Part shown: one piece after another, positions 12,289 to 20,979 of the stretch
Position numbering within the stretch: position 1 is the stretch's first letter
Layout of the letters: every line of letters starts with the position of its first letter
Assembly: GCF_000813965.1 (NCBI RefSeq)
Contig: NZ_JWLI01000011.1
Coordinates: 62,001-126,000 of the forward strand
Length of the DNA stretch: 64,000 bases
Direction of reading: 5' to 3'
Source of the DNA: Leisingera sp. ANG-M7
GTDB taxonomy: Bacteria; Pseudomonadota; Alphaproteobacteria; Rhodobacterales; Rhodobacteraceae
Program-made: the position numbers and the translations under genes
The notes under the pieces: model-generated
Told to the model about the DNA's origin: nothing
The model's input: the letters and a program-made list of their open reading frames with translations, nothing else
Database searches by the model: none

Positions 12289-13818
12289 ATGCGCGGGCCA
12301 CACAACATACTGCGCCTGATCCGTACAGGCGCCACTTTCGAGCGCACCGGCGCCATGCATTCGGTGCTGGAGGCGTTTGAAGCGCCGAAACCCCTGCGCA
12401 TTCTGGCCCGCACCCTGGGCTGGCCGTTCAAATGGCTGGGCTACAAGGGTGACCCCGCGATGCCGCCCGAAACCCGCGCGCTGAACGCGTTGGGGCCTGC
12501 TTACATCAAGTTCGGCCAAGTGCTCTCGACCCGACCGGATGTGGTGGGCAAGGATCTGGCCAACCAGTTGCGCGTGCTGCAGGACAAGCTGCCCCCATTC
12601 TCCCGCGCCGAGGCACTGGCCGAAGTGGAACGGGAACTGGGCCGCCCGGTCTCCGAGATTTTCTCAGACTTCAGCGACCCGATCGCCGCTGCCTCCATCG
12701 CCCAGGTGCACCGCGCAACCTTGGCCGAGACCGGCGAGGAAGTCGCTGTCAAGGTGCTGCGCCCCGGCATTGAACGCGCGTTCAATAAGGACGTGGACGC
12801 CTTCTATTTCGCGGCCCGCATCGTCGACCTGTTTGCGCCCGGCGCCCGGCGCCTGAAGCCAATGGATGTGATTGAGCATTTCGACGGTGTGGTGCAGGGT
12901 GAACTGGACCTGCGTCTTGAAAGCGCAGCCGCCTCGGAATTTGCGGCCAATACGGCAAAGGACGAAGGCTTCCAGCTGCCGGAAATCCGCTGGGCCTATT
13001 CCGCCCGCCGGGTGATGACCATGGGTTGGGCCGATGGTATTGCGCTCGGCGACAATGACGCCCTGGATGCGGCCGGCCACGACCGCAAGATCCTAGCTGA
13101 CCGGGTGCTGTCGCTGTTCCTGCGCCATGCGCTGCGCGATGGTTTCTTCCATGCCGACATGCACCAGGGAAACCTTAAGGTCGCGGCCAATGGCGATATC
13201 ATCGCCTATGACTTCGGCATCATGGGCCACATCGACGAATACACCCGCCGGGTTTATGCCGAGATTCTCTATGGCTTTATCAAGCGCGACTACAAACGCG
13301 TGGCCGAGGTTCATTTCGAAGCCGGCTATGTGCCCGCCAACCGCGATGTCGATGAATTCGCCCGTGCCCTGCGCGCCGTGGGCGAGCCGATCTTCGGCAT
13401 GGACGCCTCACAGATCTCGATGGGCCGCCTTCTGAACTACCTGTTTGAAGTCACCGAACGCTTTGGCATGGAAACCCGCACCGAGCTGATCTTGCTGCAG
13501 CGCACCATGGTGGTGGTCGAGGGCGTCGCACGGTCGCTGGATCCGCATATCAACATCTGGGAAGCTGCCCGGCCGGTGGTTGAGGATTACATCAAGAAAT
13601 CCATCGGCCCCCGCGCTGTTGTCACCGACCTGCTGGACACCGCCAAGGTGATGGCCCGCTTTGGCCCCCGCCTGCCTGCGCTGGTGGAACAGGCGCTGAT
13701 CGCACAAGCCGCGCAGAATGGCGCACGGCCACGCAGCCCGCGAAGCTGGGTCGCACCAGCGGTGCTGGGTGCAGCCGGCGCCACCGGCGTCTGCGCCGTG
13801 ATTGCCTTGCTGGTCTGA
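12289..13818 (+). CDS. ubiB: ABC1-type atypical kinase/ATPase UbiB
   Basis: UbiB is a membrane-associated atypical kinase required for ubiquinone synthesis. The 509-residue protein has the UbiB-specific extension motif YIKFGQVLSTRPD (the K-x-G-Q element), AAASIAQVHRA, the invariant lysine in VAVKVLRPG, FFHADMHQGNL (catalytic loop) and DFGIMG (metal loop). A C-terminal hydrophobic segment (VLGAAGATGVCAVIALLV) is the membrane anchor. In most Rhodobacterales I would expect coaBC next; here a signalling block follows instead. Confidence 0.96.
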   Translation: MRGPHNILRLIRTGATFERTGAMHSVLEAFEAPKPLRILARTLGWPFKWLGYKGDPAMPPETRALNALGPAYIKFGQVLSTRPDVVGKDLANQLRVLQDKLPPFSRAEALAEVERELGRPVSEIFSDFSDPIAAASIAQVHRATLAETGEEVAVKVLRPGIERAFNKDVDAFYFAARIVDLFAPGARRLKPMDVIEHFDGVVQGELDLRLESAAASEFAANTAKDEGFQLPEIRWAYSARRVMTMGWADGIALGDNDALDAAGHDRKILADRVLSLFLRHALRDGFFHADMHQGNLKVAANGDIIAYDFGIMGHIDEYTRRVYAEILYGFIKRDYKRVAEVHFEAGYVPANRDVDEFARALRAVGEPIFGMDASQISMGRLLNYLFEVTERFGMETRTELILLQRTMVVVEGVARSLDPHINIWEAARPVVEDYIKKSIGPRAVVTDLLDTAKVMARFGPRLPALVEQALIAQAAQNGARPRSPRSWVAPAVLGAAGATGVCAVIALLV

Positions 13819-13844
13819 ACAAGAGAAGTCTAACCATCATCACT

Positions 13845-13898
13845 TGCAGCATCCCAAGCCGGTCCGGAAATCCAGCGGGCGGCCTAACGGATGCTGCA
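13845..13898. repeat. 10-bp inverted repeat downstream of ubiB
   Basis: TGCAGCATCC and GGATGCTGCA are exact reverse complements separated by 34 bases. The spacer has its own CCGG-rich self-complementarity. No T-run follows. It could be a folded 3' UTR element or a mobility scar. Confidence 0.55.
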
Positions 13899-13965
13899 CC
13901 AGTCCGATCAGCTAATGCCCACTGGGTACTCGCCTATTGGACGAAATTCAAGCGCTCCAGACACG

Positions 13966-13994
13966 TTGACCCGCAGGTTAAACATCACCATTAT
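13966..13994 (+). promoter_or_regulatory. Possible sigma-70 promoter for the signalling genes
   Basis: TTGACC and CATTAT are separated by 17 bp, about 145 bp upstream of the first receiver gene. The match to consensus is moderate, and nothing else supports it. Confidence 0.3.
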
Positions 13995-14139
13995 AACAGC
14001 AGGAGCCGTGACCGGGTTTCCCGCATAAGTACTTGATGCAGCAGGAGCACTATTTAGCCTGCCAATTCATTCTTGCAGTAAGGCCGTGATGGAATGCATT
14101 GTTCCTGACTTCAAGCTGCAGCAACAACGGAACCAATTG

Positions 14140-14529
14140 ATGAACAACCCGCGTAAAGTTCTGCTCGTCGAAAATGACGAATTTACACGATACATGATGC
14201 GCGAGATCATCACTGCCCTTGGGGTCGAAGTCGGTATCGCGGAGAATGGTCAGACCTGCATCGACATGGTCAGCAGCTCCCCAAGCGAATACGGCCTGAT
14301 CCTGATGGATCTTCACATGCCGTTGCTTTCGGGGATCGACGCGACCAAGAAGATTCGGGAAGCCCCGATGAATCCCCCCAACAATGTACCGATCATCGCG
14401 GTGACCGCAGATGCCGCCTATCACGACGAGGCGATTATCAAGAAGCTGGGCATGGACGGTTTTACACCTAAACCAGTTTCTCCGGGCCGGATTCTCAAAA
14501 TCATCGACACATTCTGCGCAGCGGCATAG
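14140..14529 (+). CDS. Single-domain response regulator (receiver only)
   Basis: A 129-residue CheY-like receiver with no output domain. The acidic pocket is E11-N12-D13, the phospho-acceptor is Asp57 in LILMDLHMP, the switch Thr is in AVTAD (about 89), and Lys111 is in TPKPVSP. It resembles receivers that follow hybrid kinases in phosphorelays. An upstream in-frame ATG (14089, preceded by AAGG) would add 17 residues. I chose the later ATG because the receiver fold begins right after it, though its ribosome-binding site is weak. It is co-directional with the CheB-CheR gene 78 bp downstream. Confidence 0.85.
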   Translation: MNNPRKVLLVENDEFTRYMMREIITALGVEVGIAENGQTCIDMVSSSPSEYGLILMDLHMPLLSGIDATKKIREAPMNPPNNVPIIAVTADAAYHDEAIIKKLGMDGFTPKPVSPGRILKIIDTFCAAA

Positions 14530-14607
14530 ATCCCGCGCTTCACATCCCGGACAGCTTCGGGAATGGATACATTCCTTTTGACATTTATTTGAAACGGCCA
14601 TCGACAA

Positions 14608-17600
14608 ATGGAAGATATGGATCAGAAGATGAGTGCTGGTACCACCTCTGCTTCACCGGAGGGAGAAGAGGAGAATGGCCTCCATGTGGTCGGCATCGCC
14701 GCTTCTGCCGGCGGGCTGGAGGCGCTGTCTTCGCTGGTGCAGAACCTTCCTCCGGCGGCCAACGCCATCTATGTTATTGCGCAGCACATGTCGCCCACTC
14801 ACAAAAGCGTGCTGTCCTCTCTGATTGCACGCGAAACGAAACTGCCGGTCATGGAACTGGGGCGCGAGACACAGCCGGAAGCCGGCACAATTTACATTAC
14901 ACCGCCGGACACCGACGTGGTACTGGAACATGGCGTGCTGCGGCTGCGCAATCCTGCTGGCCACCCAGCTTCCCCCAAACCCTCAGCTGACCGCCTGTTC
15001 AAGAGCATTGCCGAAGAATGCGCGGAGCGCTGTGTTGGCATTGTGCTGTCCGGGACGGGCAGCGATGGCAGCTATGGTGTGCAGGCCATCCGTGAAAGCG
15101 GCGGCATCACCATTGCCCAGGACCCCAGTTCTGCAAAATACGACGGGATGCCTTCTTCCGCCATTGAAAGCGGCTGCATCGACCTGACGCTGACGCCGGA
15201 ACAGATCGGCCAGCATTTTGAAAAGATCCTGACTAGGCCGCGCAATCTGTCGATGTTGCAGCCCAGCGCAGGTGAACCCAGCAAGCTGAGCGATCTGTTT
15301 GCCATCCTGATGGCGCGGACCCAGGTGGATTTTGCCAACTATAAGGAAAACACCATAAACCGGCGGGTAGCCCGCCGGATGACCGCGCTCGGCATCGAAG
15401 ACTACGAGAGCTATGTCGACTATTGCAGATCAAACTTCGAGGAAGTCGACGCTCTGCACCGGGATCTGCTGATTTCAGTTACCCGTTTCTTCCGCGACCC
15501 GGAACAGTTCCGCAAACTGAACGACCAGCTGGAAAAGCAGCTGGCAAGCCGCGGTCCCGGCCCGATCCGGGTTTGGGTCGCAGGCTGCGCCACTGGAGAG
15601 GAAGCCTACTCCATTGCCATTCTGATCGCGGAGCTTCTTGGCGGCCTCCACGCGCTGACCAAGAGCAACGTGCAGATATTTGCCACCGATATCGATCAGA
15701 ATGCCATCGAGATCGCGCGCAGGGGCATTTACCCGGCTTCAGCGGCCCAGGATATTCCAGCGTCCTATCTGAAGGAGTATTTTAACCTCGGCGAAAGCGA
15801 CATCGCTGTCCGCCAGGAACTGCGCAATGTCACCCTGTTCTCACAGCACAATGTGTTCCAGGATCCGCCCTTCATAAATCTGGATCTGGTCACCATCCGG
15901 AACGTTCTGATCTACTTCAATCTGGCGCTTCAGGAACGTGTGCTGACCCGGCTGCACTATTCCCTCGCTTCAGGCGGGCTTCTGTTCCTGGGCACGTCTG
16001 AAACCGTTGGTGAAATGGGCATCTATTTCGAAGCCAGGCAAGGTGCCGATAAGATTTTCGGAAAACGCCGCGGCATTTCACGGGAGCTGACAGTTTCCCC
16101 CAGCACGCCAGGCAGCGCCTATCTGCGATCCCAAAGCATGCGGCGCTCGGCGGCGCAGGCGGCAGCGGAACAGGCGGACCAAGCCGACCTTTCCTTGGCG
16201 CGCGCCGTTGCGCCCAATGGTATGATTTGCACCCGTAACGGAGACATCATCGAGGTCCTGGGCGATATCAGCATCTACAGCGAGATCCGGGCTGGAATGT
16301 CGACATCGCTGAACGTGAAAATGCTGATTGAGCCATTGCGCAGCGAGGCTGCAAGCCTGATCGCGGTTTCCATCCGCAACGAGGAGCGCCGCGACGGGCG
16401 CTGGCACAGCGTATCCTTGCCAAACGGCAACCGCGTTCAATTGCAGGCCTTCCCTTTCTTCAGCCGAAAGGGCGGTGAAGTACACTGCCTGCTGGCAATC
16501 AATTCCAAGTTCGAAGAGCAGAAGGAAATCAATTTCGAAGATATTTCCGACCGCGAACAGCGCGACTATGTCGAGCGCATGGAACTTGAGATCCGGTCCA
16601 CCCAGGAAGCGCTTCAGCAGACAATCGAGGAACTTCAAACCGCCAATGAAGAGCTGCAGTCCTCCAACGAGGAATTGCAATCCACCAATGAGGAATTCCA
16701 GGCCACAAACGAGGAATTGGAAACCTCCAACGAGGAATTGCAATCTACAAACGAAGAACTGCTGACCGTTAACGAAGAGTTACAGATCAGCTCTGCGGAA
16801 CGCCAGGCGCTGGCCTCAGAGCTGGAAGCGATGCTGGCATCTTCGCCTTACGCAGTTGCGCTTGCTGATCAAGCACTGATTATCCGGCGGCTGTCTCGCG
16901 TAGCGCAGGATGTGTTTGGCATTCGCGAGCTTCCACCAACCGGGTTGCACTTGAGCCATTGCAACCTGCCCAGCGGCTTCCCAGCACTGGCGCCGATTGC
17001 AAACACTGTGCTGCGGCTGCAGGAAACCCGGCGCATTCCAGTACTTTCAGGCAACGAGTACTACACACTGATCCTGTCTCCGGTGCTGGATCTTCATCAA
17101 AAGCTGATCGGCATCTCGATCACCGTTTCCCGTTTCGACAACGAGCGCTTTAACGATGTTCTGAAGCTGGTAAGCAAGGTGACAAATGTTGGTTTCTGGA
17201 CTCAGAACCTGCAAACGAAGGAGACTTATCTCTCCCCGGAAACACACTCCATTTTGGGAATCGAAGACTGCGAGGCTGGCCTTGACCTCGATGAATTGCT
17301 GACCCGGGCCCATCCGGAAGACCAGCCCCGCCTGCAAGCGCGGCTGGACAAGCTGATGGAAGAGGGAGGGTCATTTGAGTATGAAGCCCGTTTCTTCGAT
17401 GATGCGGGTAACACGCTTGGCATAGCAGGGAGCCTGATGGTCTTTCAGGACTCCCACGGCGAGAAAGTCCAACTGATTGGCGTGTGCTGGGACAAAGCGA
17501 AATTCGAAGAACGCAACCTGATGCTGGGATCCAGCGCAGCGGTGCTGAACCACTTCTCAGTAGGCACCTTTTCATTTGACGTAAGGAACAATGTGCCGCT

Positions 17601-17886
17601 CTGGAATGCGCCGATGTATAACCTGCTGGGATGTGTTCAAGGCAAGGACGTGCCATCCGTGGAAACGCTGCTGGAGCGCCTCCACCCGGAGGATCGGGAC
17701 TATGTGAACGACGGGCTGCAGGACGCGCTGACTGCAGGACAGCCCTTCCTCTATCCGATCAGGCTAATGTCTTCGGATGGCAGCTACCAAAGAGGCGAGC
17801 TGTTTGCTCAAGCCCGTCAGGACGGGGCGGGCCGCACGACCCATGTCTTTGGCGGCATGAAGCTTTACCGGAGCGGACCAGAGTGA
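14608..17886 (+). CDS. CheB-CheR-PAS fusion signalling protein
   Basis: A 1092-residue cytoplasmic protein. Residues 25-205 are a CheB methylesterase with the Ser33 (AASAGG), His60 (QHMSP) and Asp153 (GTGSDG) triad intact. Residues 225-487 are a CheR methyltransferase with SVTRFFRD, the SAM motif VWVAGCATGEEAYSIA and RNVLIYF. A PAS-like stretch lies near 530-640. Residues 650-740 are a coiled coil built of seven NEELQ-type heptads. At least two more PAS-like domains follow to the end. There is no histidine kinase domain; a separate kinase gene follows. No receptor, CheA or CheW lies nearby, so it probably serves a non-chemotaxis sensory pathway. Its substrate is unknown. Confidence 0.9.
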   Translation: MEDMDQKMSAGTTSASPEGEEENGLHVVGIAASAGGLEALSSLVQNLPPAANAIYVIAQHMSPTHKSVLSSLIARETKLPVMELGRETQPEAGTIYITPPDTDVVLEHGVLRLRNPAGHPASPKPSADRLFKSIAEECAERCVGIVLSGTGSDGSYGVQAIRESGGITIAQDPSSAKYDGMPSSAIESGCIDLTLTPEQIGQHFEKILTRPRNLSMLQPSAGEPSKLSDLFAILMARTQVDFANYKENTINRRVARRMTALGIEDYESYVDYCRSNFEEVDALHRDLLISVTRFFRDPEQFRKLNDQLEKQLASRGPGPIRVWVAGCATGEEAYSIAILIAELLGGLHALTKSNVQIFATDIDQNAIEIARRGIYPASAAQDIPASYLKEYFNLGESDIAVRQELRNVTLFSQHNVFQDPPFINLDLVTIRNVLIYFNLALQERVLTRLHYSLASGGLLFLGTSETVGEMGIYFEARQGADKIFGKRRGISRELTVSPSTPGSAYLRSQSMRRSAAQAAAEQADQADLSLARAVAPNGMICTRNGDIIEVLGDISIYSEIRAGMSTSLNVKMLIEPLRSEAASLIAVSIRNEERRDGRWHSVSLPNGNRVQLQAFPFFSRKGGEVHCLLAINSKFEEQKEINFEDISDREQRDYVERMELEIRSTQEALQQTIEELQTANEELQSSNEELQSTNEEFQATNEELETSNEELQSTNEELLTVNEELQISSAERQALASELEAMLASSPYAVALADQALIIRRLSRVAQDVFGIRELPPTGLHLSHCNLPSGFPALAPIANTVLRLQETRRIPVLSGNEYYTLILSPVLDLHQKLIGISITVSRFDNERFNDVLKLVSKVTNVGFWTQNLQTKETYLSPETHSILGIEDCEAGLDLDELLTRAHPEDQPRLQARLDKLMEEGGSFEYEARFFDDAGNTLGIAGSLMVFQDSHGEKVQLIGVCWDKAKFEERNLMLGSSAAVLNHFSVGTFSFDVRNNVPLWNAPMYNLLGCVQGKDVPSVETLLERLHPEDRDYVNDGLQDALTAGQPFLYPIRLMSSDGSYQRGELFAQARQDGAGRTTHVFGGMKLYRSGPE
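16624..16788 (+). repeat. In-frame tandem 21-bp repeat encoding NEELQ heptads
   Basis: Seven consecutive degenerate 21-base units encode N-E-E-L/F-Q/E/L-x-x, predicted to form a continuous coiled coil between the CheR and C-terminal PAS parts. The codons differ between units (aac/aat, gag/gaa), so the repeat is kept at protein level rather than being recent DNA slippage. Confidence 0.85.
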
Positions 17887-17995
17887 ACCAGGCCCGCTTA
17901 AAAAATATTTGCCCGGAATGCACTTGCGACCGGTTTTGGCTTCGGCAGCCGTGCCTTCACGCAGAACGTCGCGAAACTTGCGACGACCGGCATTG

Positions 17996-19141
17996 ATGCA
18001 GTTACCGGCGGGAAATGACGCCCTGGAGGCTGAACTATTGGGGAGAGCCTATTTGGCCTCCCCTTACGCATCACTCATTCTCGACTGGAACGGCCGTATT
18101 CTTGTCTGCAACAGGCGGGCAGAGCGCAGCTTTGCCCCAGGCTCCCAGCCTGGCTGCGGTGCGCTGAATGGAACCTGTATCAGCAAGCTGACGACGCTGG
18201 AAACCAAGCGCGTCGTCGAGCGGCTCCGGGATGGTACGGCCAAGGGTGCCATGACCCTGCCCATGACCGCTGGCATCCGCACGGCGGCATCTCCGGAAAC
18301 GGAATTCCGCGTTTCTTTGCTGCGTTCCGATGCACAGGGCGAGCGGCTGATCCTGCTGACCCACGACCAGCTCAGGGTGACCGCGGACTCCCTCCGGCAG
18401 ATGAACGAGTTTCGCGGCAAACTGAACAGTGAACTGCACGGTGTTAAACACGCCAACCTGAAGCTGCAGGAAACTCTGCTGTCGATGGAGGCCTTCGCCC
18501 ACGCGGCATCCCATGACCTTCGCACACCCATCAGCACTCTCGCCGGTTCTTTGCATTATTTCTGGGAGCATTACGCCGACGACCTGCCCGAAACAGCGCG
18601 GGAATTCCTGCAGCACATGACCCGAGCCACCAGGCAGATGGATCGGCTGACAACCGAATTGCTGGACCATTCCGTGTCGACGTCAGCCAGAATAAACGTT
18701 CAGGAAATCGCCGCACGGGACGCGGTGTCTGAGGCATGCACAAGCCTGACGCAGGAACTGCAAGCCTGCAGCGGGAATATCCGCGTCAACGGTGACGGCT
18801 TCCGGCTGCATGCAGATCCGACGCTGCTGCATCTGGTGCTCATAAATCTATTGTCGAATGCGATCAAATACCGGCATCCTGACCGGCCTTTGCAAATTAC
18901 AATTGATCTCAGCGGCGCCAGGCAGGATCAGTGGAAAATATCGGTTGCCGACAACGGAACCGGCTTTGATCCGCAAGACCGGCACATGATCCTTCAGCCC
19001 TTCCACCGGGCGCACCGCGAGATAGAAGGCAGCGGCATCGGGCTGTCGACTTGCGCTGAGATCTGCCGCCGCCACAACTGGCTGCTCACTGCGGATGCAG
19101 AACCCGGCAAGGGCGCAGTCTTCACCATTTCTTTCGGTTAG
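17996..19141 (+). CDS. PAS-domain sensor histidine kinase
   Basis: A soluble kinase of about 381 residues. Residues 17-125 look like a PAS sensor (SPYASLILDWNGRILVCNRRAERSF). A linker coiled coil leads to HisKA with the phospho-accepting His173 in ASHDLRTP. HATPase_c has the N box (LLSNAIKYRHP), G1 (VADNGTGFD) and G2 (GSGIGLSTCAEIC). It has no transmembrane segment and no receiver. It follows the CheB-CheR gene, which lacks a kinase, so the two may act as one split sensor. The start is uncertain: a TTG at 17909 and an ATG at 17918 are in frame but add an Arg-rich tail outside any domain. Confidence 0.85.
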   Translation: MQLPAGNDALEAELLGRAYLASPYASLILDWNGRILVCNRRAERSFAPGSQPGCGALNGTCISKLTTLETKRVVERLRDGTAKGAMTLPMTAGIRTAASPETEFRVSLLRSDAQGERLILLTHDQLRVTADSLRQMNEFRGKLNSELHGVKHANLKLQETLLSMEAFAHAASHDLRTPISTLAGSLHYFWEHYADDLPETAREFLQHMTRATRQMDRLTTELLDHSVSTSARINVQEIAARDAVSEACTSLTQELQACSGNIRVNGDGFRLHADPTLLHLVLINLLSNAIKYRHPDRPLQITIDLSGARQDQWKISVADNGTGFDPQDRHMILQPFHRAHREIEGSGIGLSTCAEICRRHNWLLTADAEPGKGAVFTISFG

Positions 19142-19153
19142 GAAAAGCCCGGT

Positions 19154-19540
19154 TCAGCAGGCCTCAGCGGTGACCATCTGACCGGCGACATAGTCGATCA
19201 TGCTGACAAGATCAGACAGGTTGACCGGCTTGTGCAGCACCCACCGGATATTGCGGCTCAGTCCAAACAGTTCGCCGCCGGTGAACAGGCGGCTGCCGGT
19301 TATGTAGACAACCGGCATATCCGGGCGCATCAGAGCAGCATAGTCAGCCACATGCAGCGACATTTCTTCTCCGATCTTCAAGTCCAGGATCAGTATACCT
19401 GTTTCGATGTCGGAAAGGGCCGCAATTGCTTCGGCACAACTGGCAACAGGTTTTACATCATATCCCGCGTCTTGCAGTGCCATTGTGAAGGTGAAACGGA
19501 CACCTTGGTCATCTTCCAGAAGCAGCACCTTAGTTGTCAT
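19154..19540 (-). CDS. Single-domain response regulator (receiver only), antisense-oriented
   Basis: A 128-residue receiver with the acidic pair D10-D11, the acceptor Asp53 in ILILDLKIG, the switch Thr81 in YITGS and Lys104 in VLHKPVN. There is no output domain. It is convergent with the histidine kinase gene, 12 bp apart, so it is transcribed separately. It is likely a partner of that kinase or of a branch in the same relay. The first receiver in the block is only distantly similar to it. Confidence 0.85.
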   Translation of the reverse strand: MTTKVLLLEDDQGVRFTFTMALQDAGYDVKPVASCAEAIAALSDIETGILILDLKIGEEMSLHVADYAALMRPDMPVVYITGSRLFTGGELFGLSRNIRWVLHKPVNLSDLVSMIDYVAGQMVTAEAC

Positions 19541-19658
19541 TACATCCCCTTACCGACCGGCTCGCTGCGCGAACTGCGCTCTTGCTTCGCCTTTAGCTGG
19601 CATTTCACCCCCTACGGAGGCCAGTCCAGCGCACACATGACATGAAACGAGTAACTTA

Positions 19659-19686
19659 TTGCGATTCTTATCATAATTAAAATACT
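19659..19686 (+). promoter_or_regulatory. Possible promoter of the candidate small RNA
   Basis: TTGCGA and AATACT lie 16 bp apart in an unusually AT-rich stretch. Each box matches four of six consensus bases. It points toward a terminator about 80 bp further on, with no gene between. Confidence 0.3.
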
Positions 19687-19693
19687 ACTTTGG

Positions 19694-19805
19694 ATTGCAC
19701 TCGCTGTATACGAGAAAACCGTAACCTGTCCGCAAAACCCGAGACAACTGGCTGGTCAGGGCGGGCATGGGGTCCGCCTGCCGGCTCCCATGCCCTTCCT
19801 TTTTC
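19694..19805 (+). ncRNA. Candidate orphan small RNA (predicted)
   Basis: The interval between the second receiver gene and the thiolase gene has no coding frame. On the plus strand it runs from a plausible promoter to a strong hairpin with a U-tract, predicting an RNA of about 110 nt. Nothing on the plus strand needs this terminator otherwise. This is inferred only from promoter and terminator placement. Confidence 0.35.
19763..19805 (+). terminator. Plus-strand intrinsic terminator with no annotated gene upstream
   Basis: GGGCATGGG and CCCATGCCC pair perfectly, with 15 bases between, followed by TTCCTTTTT on the plus strand. The minus-strand side has no U-run, so it does not serve the thiolase gene that ends here. 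Confidence 0.7.
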
Positions 19806-20979
19806 AAAGACGCTCAATTGCAAGGGCAATTCCCTGACCACCGCCAATGCACATGGTGATCAGCCCCTTGGACCCTCCGGTGCGCTCCAATTCATACAGC
19901 GTTTTCAAGGTGATAATAGCACCAGTTGCGCCCACCGGGTGGCCCAGCGCGATGGCGCCGCCGTTTGGGTTCACCTTGGCCGGATTCAGCCCCAGTTCCT
20001 TGTTCACCGCCAGCGCCTGCGAAGCAAAGGCTTCATTTGATTCAATGACGTCGAAATCGCCGGCAGACAGACCGGTTTTAGTCAGCAGGTTGCGCACCGC
20101 GGGAACCGGTCCGATACCCATCACCTCGGGCCGCACCCCGGCATGGGCATAGCCCAGAATCCGAGCCTTCGGTTTCAGCCCGGCCCGCTCAGCCGCCGCC
20201 GCAGTGGCCAGCACCATGGCCGCGGCGCCATCGTTGATTCCGCTGGCATTTCCGGCAGTTACCCGGCCGTCCTTCTGAAATACCGCCCGCAGGCCCGCGA
20301 GTGCTTCAGGTGTGGTGGGCTTGGGGTGCTCGTCCACTTCGAACGGCACCATGTCGCGCTTCACCTTGACCTCCACGGGCGTGATCTGGGACCCGAAGTA
20401 CCCGGCCTCAATCGCCGCGGCGGCGCGGGTCTGGCTGGTGAGGGCAAATGCGTCCATCTGTTCGCGGGTAACGCCGTGCTCATCTGCGACATTCTCTGCC
20501 GTCACGCCCATATGGCCGGTGCCGAAGGGGCAGTTGAGCGCGCCCAGCATCATGTCGAGCGATTTTACATCGCCCATCTTGGCGCCCCAACGGCTTTGCT
20601 GGATGATGTAGGGGCTGCGCGACATATTCTCAGCGCCGCCAGCCAGGGCGAACTCCGCATCCCCCAAGGCAAGCGATTGATAAGCAGACACAATTGCCTG
20701 CACGCCAGAGCCGCAGAGGCGGTTCACATTCATTGCCGGCACCACGTCCGGGACGCCTGCCTGCATGGCTGCGACACGGCTCAGGTACATGTCGCGGGGC
20801 TCAGTGTTGATAATGTGGCCGAACACCACATGGCCGATCTGGCCGCCCTCCACTCCGGAACGCTCCAGCGCCGCCTTGGACACGGTGGCGGCCAGGTCGA
20901 TTGGCGCGGTGTTTGCCAGCGCGCCGCCGAAGGTGCCGATGGCGGTACGGGCGCCGTCCAGGATCACGATGTCTGTCAT
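19804..20979 (-). CDS. Acetyl-CoA acetyltransferase / beta-ketothiolase
   Basis: A 391-residue biosynthetic-type thiolase that condenses two acetyl-CoA or cleaves 3-ketoacyl-CoA. It has the acyl-accepting Cys in NRLCGSGVQA (about residue 88), the His in GGAIALGHPVGATGA and the C-terminal Cys in CIGGGQGIAL. MTDIVILDGARTAIGTFGG is a typical start. It is phaA/bktB-like, but no phaB lies here, so I give no symbol. It is divergent from the XRE-cupin regulator, with a 198-bp gap. Confidence 0.92.
   Translation of the reverse strand: MTDIVILDGARTAIGTFGGALANTAPIDLAATVSKAALERSGVEGGQIGHVVFGHIINTEPRDMYLSRVAAMQAGVPDVVPAMNVNRLCGSGVQAIVSAYQSLALGDAEFALAGGAENMSRSPYIIQQSRWGAKMGDVKSLDMMLGALNCPFGTGHMGVTAENVADEHGVTREQMDAFALTSQTRAAAAIEAGYFGSQITPVEVKVKRDMVPFEVDEHPKPTTPEALAGLRAVFQKDGRVTAGNASGINDGAAAMVLATAAAAERAGLKPKARILGYAHAGVRPEVMGIGPVPAVRNLLTKTGLSAGDFDVIESNEAFASQALAVNKELGLNPAKVNPNGGAIALGHPVGATGAIITLKTLYELERTGGSKGLITMCIGGGQGIALAIERL

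What the first reader, a model, noticed from the sequence alone, without database searches (positions are those of the whole stretch)
14140..19540. Split CheB-CheR/kinase/receiver block with no chemotaxis partners
Seen directly: a receiver-only gene, a 1092-residue CheB-CheR-PAS protein with intact CheB triad and CheR SAM motif but no kinase, a separate soluble PAS-HisKA kinase, and a second receiver-only gene on the opposite strand. No receptor, CheA, CheW or output domain is nearby. Known CheB-CheR-PAS proteins often carry the kinase in the same chain, so this looks like a divided version. What CheB and CheR modify when no chemoreceptor is present is open.
Basis: partly seen in the sequence, partly recalled or inferred. 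Interest (0 to 1): 0.62.

Follow-up and report, generated by a model that had tools for sequence, protein, structure and literature searches.

The report
CheB-CheR sensor with built-in methylation coil
A Leisingera bacterium carries a sensor protein that joins the two enzymes which add and remove methyl tags on chemotaxis receptors, and the protein seems to carry its own receptor-like target for those enzymes, which would explain why such proteins also exist in bacteria where no chemotaxis receptor was found.

Summary
The four genes exist as described, with small start corrections. One premise fails: the same genome holds 13 MCPsignal matches, a CheA, a second CheB and two more CheRs, though none in the window. 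In 21 Leisingera genomes the CheB-CheR protein (CHEBR) and kinase (HK) occur together in 12; REC2 accompanies them in 12 of 12, REC1 in 10 of 12. REC1's original partner looks like a lost membrane kinase. One Tateyamaria record has the whole block. Related kinase-less CHEBRs mostly sit beside an undescribed ~220-aa protein instead. The new point: between catalytic and PAS parts lies a long helix of NEELQST-like heptads. It is the best conserved region of the fusions; its exposed Glu-Glu pairs average 97-100% conservation, above the helix core, are spaced by seven and resemble chemoreceptor methylation sites. A DNA pattern for it was found only in CheB/CheR fusions wherever I checked. Catalytic residues and coil persist in genomes with no CheA and no over-cut-off chemoreceptor match. 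Best explanation: CHEBR methylates and demethylates its own coil, a built-in adaptation device, and passes its state to a separate kinase. Self-methylation is inferred, not shown. Against it: fusions are enriched in genomes with CheA.

The parts
14140..14529 (+). REC1, receiver-only protein, 129 aa; probably once the partner of a lost upstream kinase (HK2)
14608..17886 (+). CHEBR, CheB-CheR-PAS fusion, 1092 aa, no kinase
14689..15216 (+). CheB methylesterase domain (aa 28-203), triad S33/H60/D153, no N-terminal receiver
15292..16041 (+). CheR N-terminal and SAM-binding domains (aa 229-478)
16150..16509 (+). Possible PAS-like region between CheR and coil (aa ~515-634), read by me from the secondary structure of the model, not called by Pfam
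   Evidence: inference
16627..16779 (+). Heptad coil with eight Glu-Glu pairs (aa 674-724), proposed self-methylation region; lies in one predicted helix aa 649-745
16822..17859 (+). Three PAS-type regions (aa 739-841 just below Pfam's cut-off, 873-959, 978-1084)
17996..19141 (+). HK, soluble HisKA/HATPase_c kinase, 381 aa
19154..19540 (-). REC2, receiver-only protein, 128 aa, convergent with HK; same direction as HK in Tateyamaria

Best explanation
CHEBR is a self-contained sensory adaptation protein. Its CheR domain methylates and its CheB domain demethylates glutamates in its own (or its dimer mate's) coiled coil, whose NEELQST-like heptads present Glu-Glu pairs every seven residues as chemoreceptor methylation helices do. 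PAS domains next to the coil sense the signal; the methylation state of the coil resets their response. The output passes to the separately encoded kinase HK and from it to REC2 (and perhaps REC1). Shown: domains, intact catalytic residues, coil conservation, association of the motif with CheB/CheR in one chain wherever checked, occurrence without CheA or over-cut-off MCP matches, gene association CHEBR-HK-REC2. Inferred: methylation of the coil, sensing, direction of signalling, phosphotransfer.
For: (1) In 80 fusions (window plus 79 of the 80 loci; the broken Leisingera copy L142 left out) the coil (aa 668-728) is the best conserved region: mean majority-residue fraction 0.78 against 0.61 CheB, 0.58 CheR, 0.55 CheR_N, 0.42 or less elsewhere. 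(2) The exposed b and c positions (Glu-Glu) average 0.996 and 0.998, above the core positions a 0.90 and d 0.84; in a second sample of 62 family fusions (partly the same records) 0.969/0.977 against 0.867/0.856 (register assigned by me). In plain coiled coils the core is usually the conserved part (recalled). (3) Coil hexamers EELQTA, EELQSS, EELQST, EEFQAT, EELETS, EELQST, in steps of 7, against EETAAA, EELTST, EQLSAT, EQMTAS in this genome's own chemoreceptors, where neighbouring sites are 7 apart in three loci. (4) DNA pattern for EEL[QE]xxNEE: 174 hits in 54 of 248 family genomes; 150 listed: 138 inside fusion matches and 12 within 1 kb downstream on the same strand, 24 unlisted all within fusion loci I hold; one hit is on a short contig with only the part after aa 453 (G021); reversed pattern 0. 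Phylum sample: 67 of 398 genomes hit, reversed pattern 1 hit; the 30 loci returned all carry CheR homology in the same frame, the other hits were not checked. (5) 13 of 57 fusion genomes have neither CheA nor an over-cut-off MCP; the 12 aligned fusions from 11 of these 13 keep CheB S/H/D and the CheR residues looked at, but for E331, which is Q in one of the 12 (and in 12 of all 62 rows).
Against: No methylation was measured. The strict 10-letter receptor consensus (recalled) is met nowhere in CHEBR: the position four before the pair is Gln. Fusions are enriched in genomes with CheA (43 of 57 against 70 of 191, Fisher p = 3e-7), which fits a link to chemotaxis. A conserved signalling helix or dimer interface could give the same conservation. 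The 80 sequences are the best 80 of at least 586, so biased to resemble the query. Some pairs vary: in the 62 rows the outer pairs 674/675 and 723/724 are often not Glu-Glu, and 695-703 is gapped in many. No fusion with dead catalytic sites was found, so the prediction that its coil would drift could not be tested. The AF2 model has pTM 0.35 and says nothing on domain placement.
Confidence: 0.42

Rival explanations
1. CHEBR is an extra adaptation enzyme for the genome's ordinary chemoreceptors; its PAS domains tune receptor methylation.
For: 13 MCPsignal matches, CheA, a further CheB and CheRs in the genome; fusions enriched in CheA genomes, 43 of 57 against 70 of 191.
Against: 13 of 57 fusion genomes have neither CheA nor an over-cut-off MCP and the 11 of them that could be aligned keep both active sites. 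The CheB part lacks a receiver domain, through which CheA controls CheB (recalled). No MCP, CheA or second CheB or CheR match lies in the window.
Confidence: 0.2
2. The coil is a purely structural signalling helix or dimer interface; CheB and CheR act on a partner protein (HK, a receiver, or in relatives the ~220-aa neighbour), or only bind it.
For: One continuous helix aa 649-745 in the model. Tight neighbours: HK and REC2 in 12 of 12 Leisingera carriers; the ~220-aa protein in 16 of 248 family genomes, beside the fusion in 15.
Against: Conservation peaks on exposed Glu-Glu pairs, not the core; neighbours differ between lineages while the coil stays.
Confidence: 0.25
3. A decaying accessory two-component module without present function in many strains.
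For: Absent from 9 of 21 genomes: site of 107-165 bp in five, 515 bp in one, remnants in one, REC1 only (with or without HK2) in two; CHEBR broken in one carrier.
Against: CHEBR frames of at least 1093 aa in 11 of 12 carriers, though the search flagged one stop within the aligned stretch in two of them (G249, G255); dN/dS 0.04-0.34 in the 8 of 15 gene pairs that gave an estimate.
Confidence: 0.08

Closest known systems
CheB/CheR fusion proteins (KEGG K13924, label recalled)
   Same: CheB + CheR + coil + PAS; window CHEBR is a member by domains and by coil.
   Different: No fused kinase; kinase and receivers are separate genes. The listings (titles and abstract starts, open-access library) show no paper that assigns a substrate to such fusions or names the coil as one.
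Chemoreceptor (MCP) with separate CheR and CheB
   Same: Glu pairs at seven-residue spacing, CheR and CheB domains; reversible MCP methylation by CheR and CheB gives adaptation (PMC2577667, passages).
   Different: No MCPsignal domain in CHEBR; enzymes and proposed substrate are one chain.
Canonical CheB
   Same: Catalytic domain and triad.
   Different: No N-terminal receiver; REC1 lies as a separate gene 78 bp upstream.
Ordinary soluble sensor kinase with receiver-only partners
   Same: HK HisKA/HATPase_c, REC1, REC2.
   Different: Lies next to CHEBR; no output domain called in either receiver.

Membership tests
CheB/CheR fusion protein | CheB and CheR catalytic domains in one chain with intact key residues | tested here: met
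CheB/CheR fusion protein | NEEL-type heptad coil after CheR (seen in 79 of 80 loci) | tested here: met
CheB/CheR fusion protein with kinase | Kinase domain in the same chain | tested here: not met
Methyl-accepting chemoreceptor | MCPsignal domain | tested here: not met
   no PF00015 match up to E 0.1
Methyl-accepting chemoreceptor | Methylation-site consensus in heptads (consensus recalled) | tested here: inconclusive
   six-letter half met six times, ten-letter form not met
Methyl-accepting chemoreceptor | Accepts methyl groups on glutamate | not testable with these tools
   needs biochemistry
Canonical CheB | N-terminal receiver domain | tested here: not met
   CheB match starts at aa 28 and no Response_reg match
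Histidine kinase (HK) | HisKA with phospho-acceptor His and HATPase_c | tested here: met
   His173 invariant in 8 rows
Cognate HK-REC1 pair | Strict co-occurrence | tested here: not met
   REC1 missing in 2 of 12 carriers, present without HK in 2 of 9 non-carriers
Cognate HK-REC2 pair | Strict co-occurrence | tested here: met
   12 of 12 carriers; one genome keeps an open REC2 beside remnants of the rest

The most novel reading that the evidence does not exclude
CheB/CheR fusion proteins across many bacterial phyla and an archaeon (by record titles, several of them MAGs) are autonomous self-adapting sensors: enzyme pair, methyl-accepting coil and sensory PAS domains in one chain, so that chemotaxis-style methylation memory exists for ordinary two-component signalling without chemoreceptors or CheA. 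In Leisingera this device is wired to a detachable kinase-receiver pair; in related genera to an undescribed ~220-aa protein.
Probability: 0.38. Interest if true: 0.87.

Novelty: new variant of a known kind. Interest (0 to 1): 0.64.

Why it matters
CheB/CheR fusions turned up in about a quarter of the family genomes searched and in many phyla, yet I found no assigned substrate in the searches I made. If the coil is the substrate, receptor methylation, the classic memory of chemotaxis, is also a portable device of general signalling, and one mass-spectrometry experiment can decide it.

Tried and rejected
A link in sequence between HK and the ~220-aa neighbour protein: none found (hhalign probability 0.1). 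Identity of that neighbour: no Pfam match better than E 0.012 in 14 members, no NCBIfam match in the 2 members scanned; model mean pLDDT 72.7 with a PAS-like N-terminal part and a helical hairpin; best Foldseek E 0.011, VIA Z at most 7.5, so not decisive. I first thought its hairpin might be a histidine-less HisKA hairpin; this stays a guess. RNA elements: no Rfam match in 13500-20000. Promoter-like matches at chance level (2 found, 2.2 expected) and terminator-like 10 against 5.9 expected; none used. IQ-TREE run failed, replaced by FastTree. A test whether coils drift in fusions with dead active sites: no such fusion among 62 rows. Pattern flags suggested missing motifs in a few fusions; the alignment showed the residues present. 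Of 74 family frames, 13 were left out because the match did not cover both CheB and coil, among them those of G058, G084 and G223. Three of 11 full chemoreceptor loci (L009, L012, L013) gave no printed site, and the two partial ones (L014, L015) were not examined.

Full report
OBSERVATION. The four frames are real: REC1 14140-14529 (+), CHEBR 14608-17886 (+), HK 17996-19141 (+), REC2 19154-19540 (-). CHEBR has a CheB domain without a receiver, CheR_N and CheR, a stretch without Pfam call above cut-off, a coil, and PAS regions. A model (mean pLDDT 76.7, pTM 0.35) shows one continuous helix at aa 649-745; before it lies a stretch (about 515-634) whose strand and helix order looks PAS-like to me. 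Domain placement in the model is not reliable.

GENOME. The window is G000:C3:62001-126000. The genus is Leisingera by inference: one search returned Leisingera sp. SS27 on a contig of 130,406 bases, the length of G265's contig C4, and G265 is 'same genus'. The same genome has 13 MCPsignal matches (two of them partial), 1 CheA, CheR at C10 and C8, and CheB on C21 beside a frame that I read as CheD. None lies in the window. So the finding's 'would refute' clause, a chemotaxis cluster elsewhere, is met as to chemotaxis genes being present, not as to proven substrate.

THE BLOCK IN THE GENUS. Gene names ubiB, ubiE and thiolase are my reading of the frames. Of 21 Leisingera genomes, 12 have HK orthologs of at least 59% (7 others have only distant kinases, 2 no match) and the same 12 have CHEBR of at least 75%, in G265 in pieces. 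All 12 blocks lie between ubiB and the thiolase gene (window; 11 relatives). REC2 is there in 12 of 12, REC1 in 10 of 12 (absent in G248 and G252). CHEBR has a frame of at least 1093 aa in 11 of 12 (in two of these flags one stop within the aligned stretch); in G265 it is broken. In the nine others: five have a gap of 107-165 bp, one 515 bp; G251 has remnants of REC1, CHEBR and HK with REC2 as an open frame; G257 has REC1 with another kinase, HK2; G259 has REC1 alone. A FastTree of ubiB, thiolase and regulator genes (midpoint root, some weak nodes) puts carriers and non-carriers in several clades, which fits an old block with repeated loss.

REC1's PARTNER. In G238 and G257 the kinase HK2 (512 and 496 aa; membrane type by my reading, CHASE5 below its cut-off) ends 8 bases inside REC1 (7790 against 7783 in L079; 9083 against 9090 in L122), as coupled pairs do. 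Tails of HK2 survive in G266, G248 and G252; one search found none in the window. REC1 therefore probably began as HK2's receiver. It still lies directly before CHEBR in ten Leisingera and in one Tateyamaria omphalii record, where REC1 (56%), CHEBR (64% in its best segment), HK (43%) and REC2 (46%) follow one another on one strand; I see no kinase frame upstream there. So the block is shared by at least two genera, and REC2 codirectional with HK supports a unit.

RELATIVES. In 248 family genomes 71 match CHEBR at E <= 1e-30, some of them only at plain CheRs. By my reading of that table 57 hold a CheB-CheR fusion (list typed; G021's fragment not counted; G055 and G084 matched over a short frame, G244 in two pieces). 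Of 20 fusion loci examined with flanks, 14 have a ~220-aa protein of one family next to the fusion. A profile of it, built from those 14, finds it in 16 of 248 genomes; in 15 it lies beside a fusion, the exception being a fragmented genome, G156; the window's genome and G238 lack it. It was also found in 8 of the 80 loci, beside the fusion. No Pfam match was better than E 0.012. So the window's kinase arrangement is one of several wirings of the same fusion.

FUSIONS WITHOUT CHEMORECEPTORS. CheA (PF02895) is found in 113 of 248 genomes. Fusion and CheA: 43 both, 14 fusion only, 70 CheA only, 121 neither; odds ratio 5.3, p = 3e-7. That is a real association with chemotaxis and speaks against full independence. 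But of the 14 without CheA, MCPsignal is over the cut-off in one (G223); one more (G149) has a sub-threshold match; 12 have none. The 13 without an over-cut-off match are listed as 94-100% complete. Eleven of the 13 are in the alignment (12 rows; G058 and G084 were not alignable over the coil): all 12 have CheB S/H/D and CheR R252, R296, G330, E332, D361, N432, Y436. Two close kinase-less relatives, in G145 and G149, are among them.

THE COIL. CHEBR aa 674-724 reads as eight heptads with Glu-Glu pairs. One search shows chains of 3 to 7 such heptads in 79 of 80 loci, whose record titles include Rhodospirillales, beta- and gammaproteobacteria, Desulfobulbaceae, Nitrospirae, Bacteroidetes, Planctomycetota, Verrucomicrobia, Acidobacteria and Methanolobus, an archaeon (many are MAGs; titles not checked). 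In the 80-row alignment the coil is the best conserved region (0.78). By heptad position, b and c (the Glu pair) reach 0.996 and 0.998, the core a and d 0.90 and 0.84; in the 62-row family sample 0.969, 0.977, 0.867, 0.856. In the family rows gaps fall at the heptads around 695-703 and the outer pairs are often not Glu-Glu. Eight of 11 full chemoreceptor loci of this genome printed ten-letter consensus sites, with neighbours seven residues apart in three (consensus recalled). The coil meets the Glu-Glu-x-x-small-small half six times and the ten-letter form not at all; own receptor EELTST against coil EELQST is the closest pair.

EXCLUSIVITY. The DNA pattern for EEL[QE]xxNEE gave 174 hits (my sum of the table) in 54 of 248 family genomes and 0 for the reversed pattern. 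Of 150 listed hits 138 lie inside CHEBR matches and 12 within 1 kb downstream on the same strand (the three loci concerned show the coil in the fusion frame). One of the 138 is on a 3-kb contig of G021 that holds only the part after aa 453. The 24 unlisted hits are all in fusion loci that I hold. In 398 genomes of the phylum 67 hit and the reversed pattern hit once; the 30 loci returned all carry CheR homology in the same frame (the other hits were not checked).

INTERPRETATION. A motif that looks like receptor methylation sites, whose exposed residues are conserved above its core, that was found only in the chain of the methylating and demethylating enzymes, and that persists with intact active sites where no receptor was found, is most simply read as their substrate in cis or within a dimer. 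PAS domains after (and perhaps before) the helix fit a sensory helix whose state is tuned by methylation. HK as next element and REC2 as its receiver rest on gene association. Nothing here measures methylation or phosphotransfer.

LITERATURE. The listings (titles and abstract starts; two searches returned nothing) show no paper on a substrate of CheB/CheR fusions; one search gave eight papers that hold the phrase 'CheR fusion protein', not opened. PMC2577667 was seen in passages, for receptor methylation and adaptation. The library is open-access only, so work elsewhere may exist.

Noticed in passing
alignments A1 (14 rows, e.g. L086 6665-7348, L091 10349-11026) and A4 (8 rows, e.g. L150 5085-5780): Undescribed ~220-aa protein next to CheB-CheR fusions in 15 of 16 family genomes that hold it; PAS-like part plus helical hairpin in a model of modest confidence, no good Pfam match.
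   Followed up: partly
L079 6252-7790 and L122 9083-10573: Kinase HK2 whose end overlaps the start of REC1; remnants in L106, L107, L108.
   Followed up: partly
L121 2375-3661: Leisingera G251: remnants of REC1, CHEBR and HK, with REC2 still an open frame, so REC2 may have another partner.
   Followed up: no
L102 10193-13404 / L142: CHEBR broken in Leisingera sp. SS27 while REC1, HK and REC2 still match over their full length.
   Followed up: no
L210: Record titled Bifidobacterium breve MAG holds a CheB-CheR fusion; title or binning is doubtful.
   Followed up: no
L096 5891-9919, L095 7358-12610: Family fusions whose long frame also matches the kinase HK, for comparison with the kinase-less type.
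   Followed up: no
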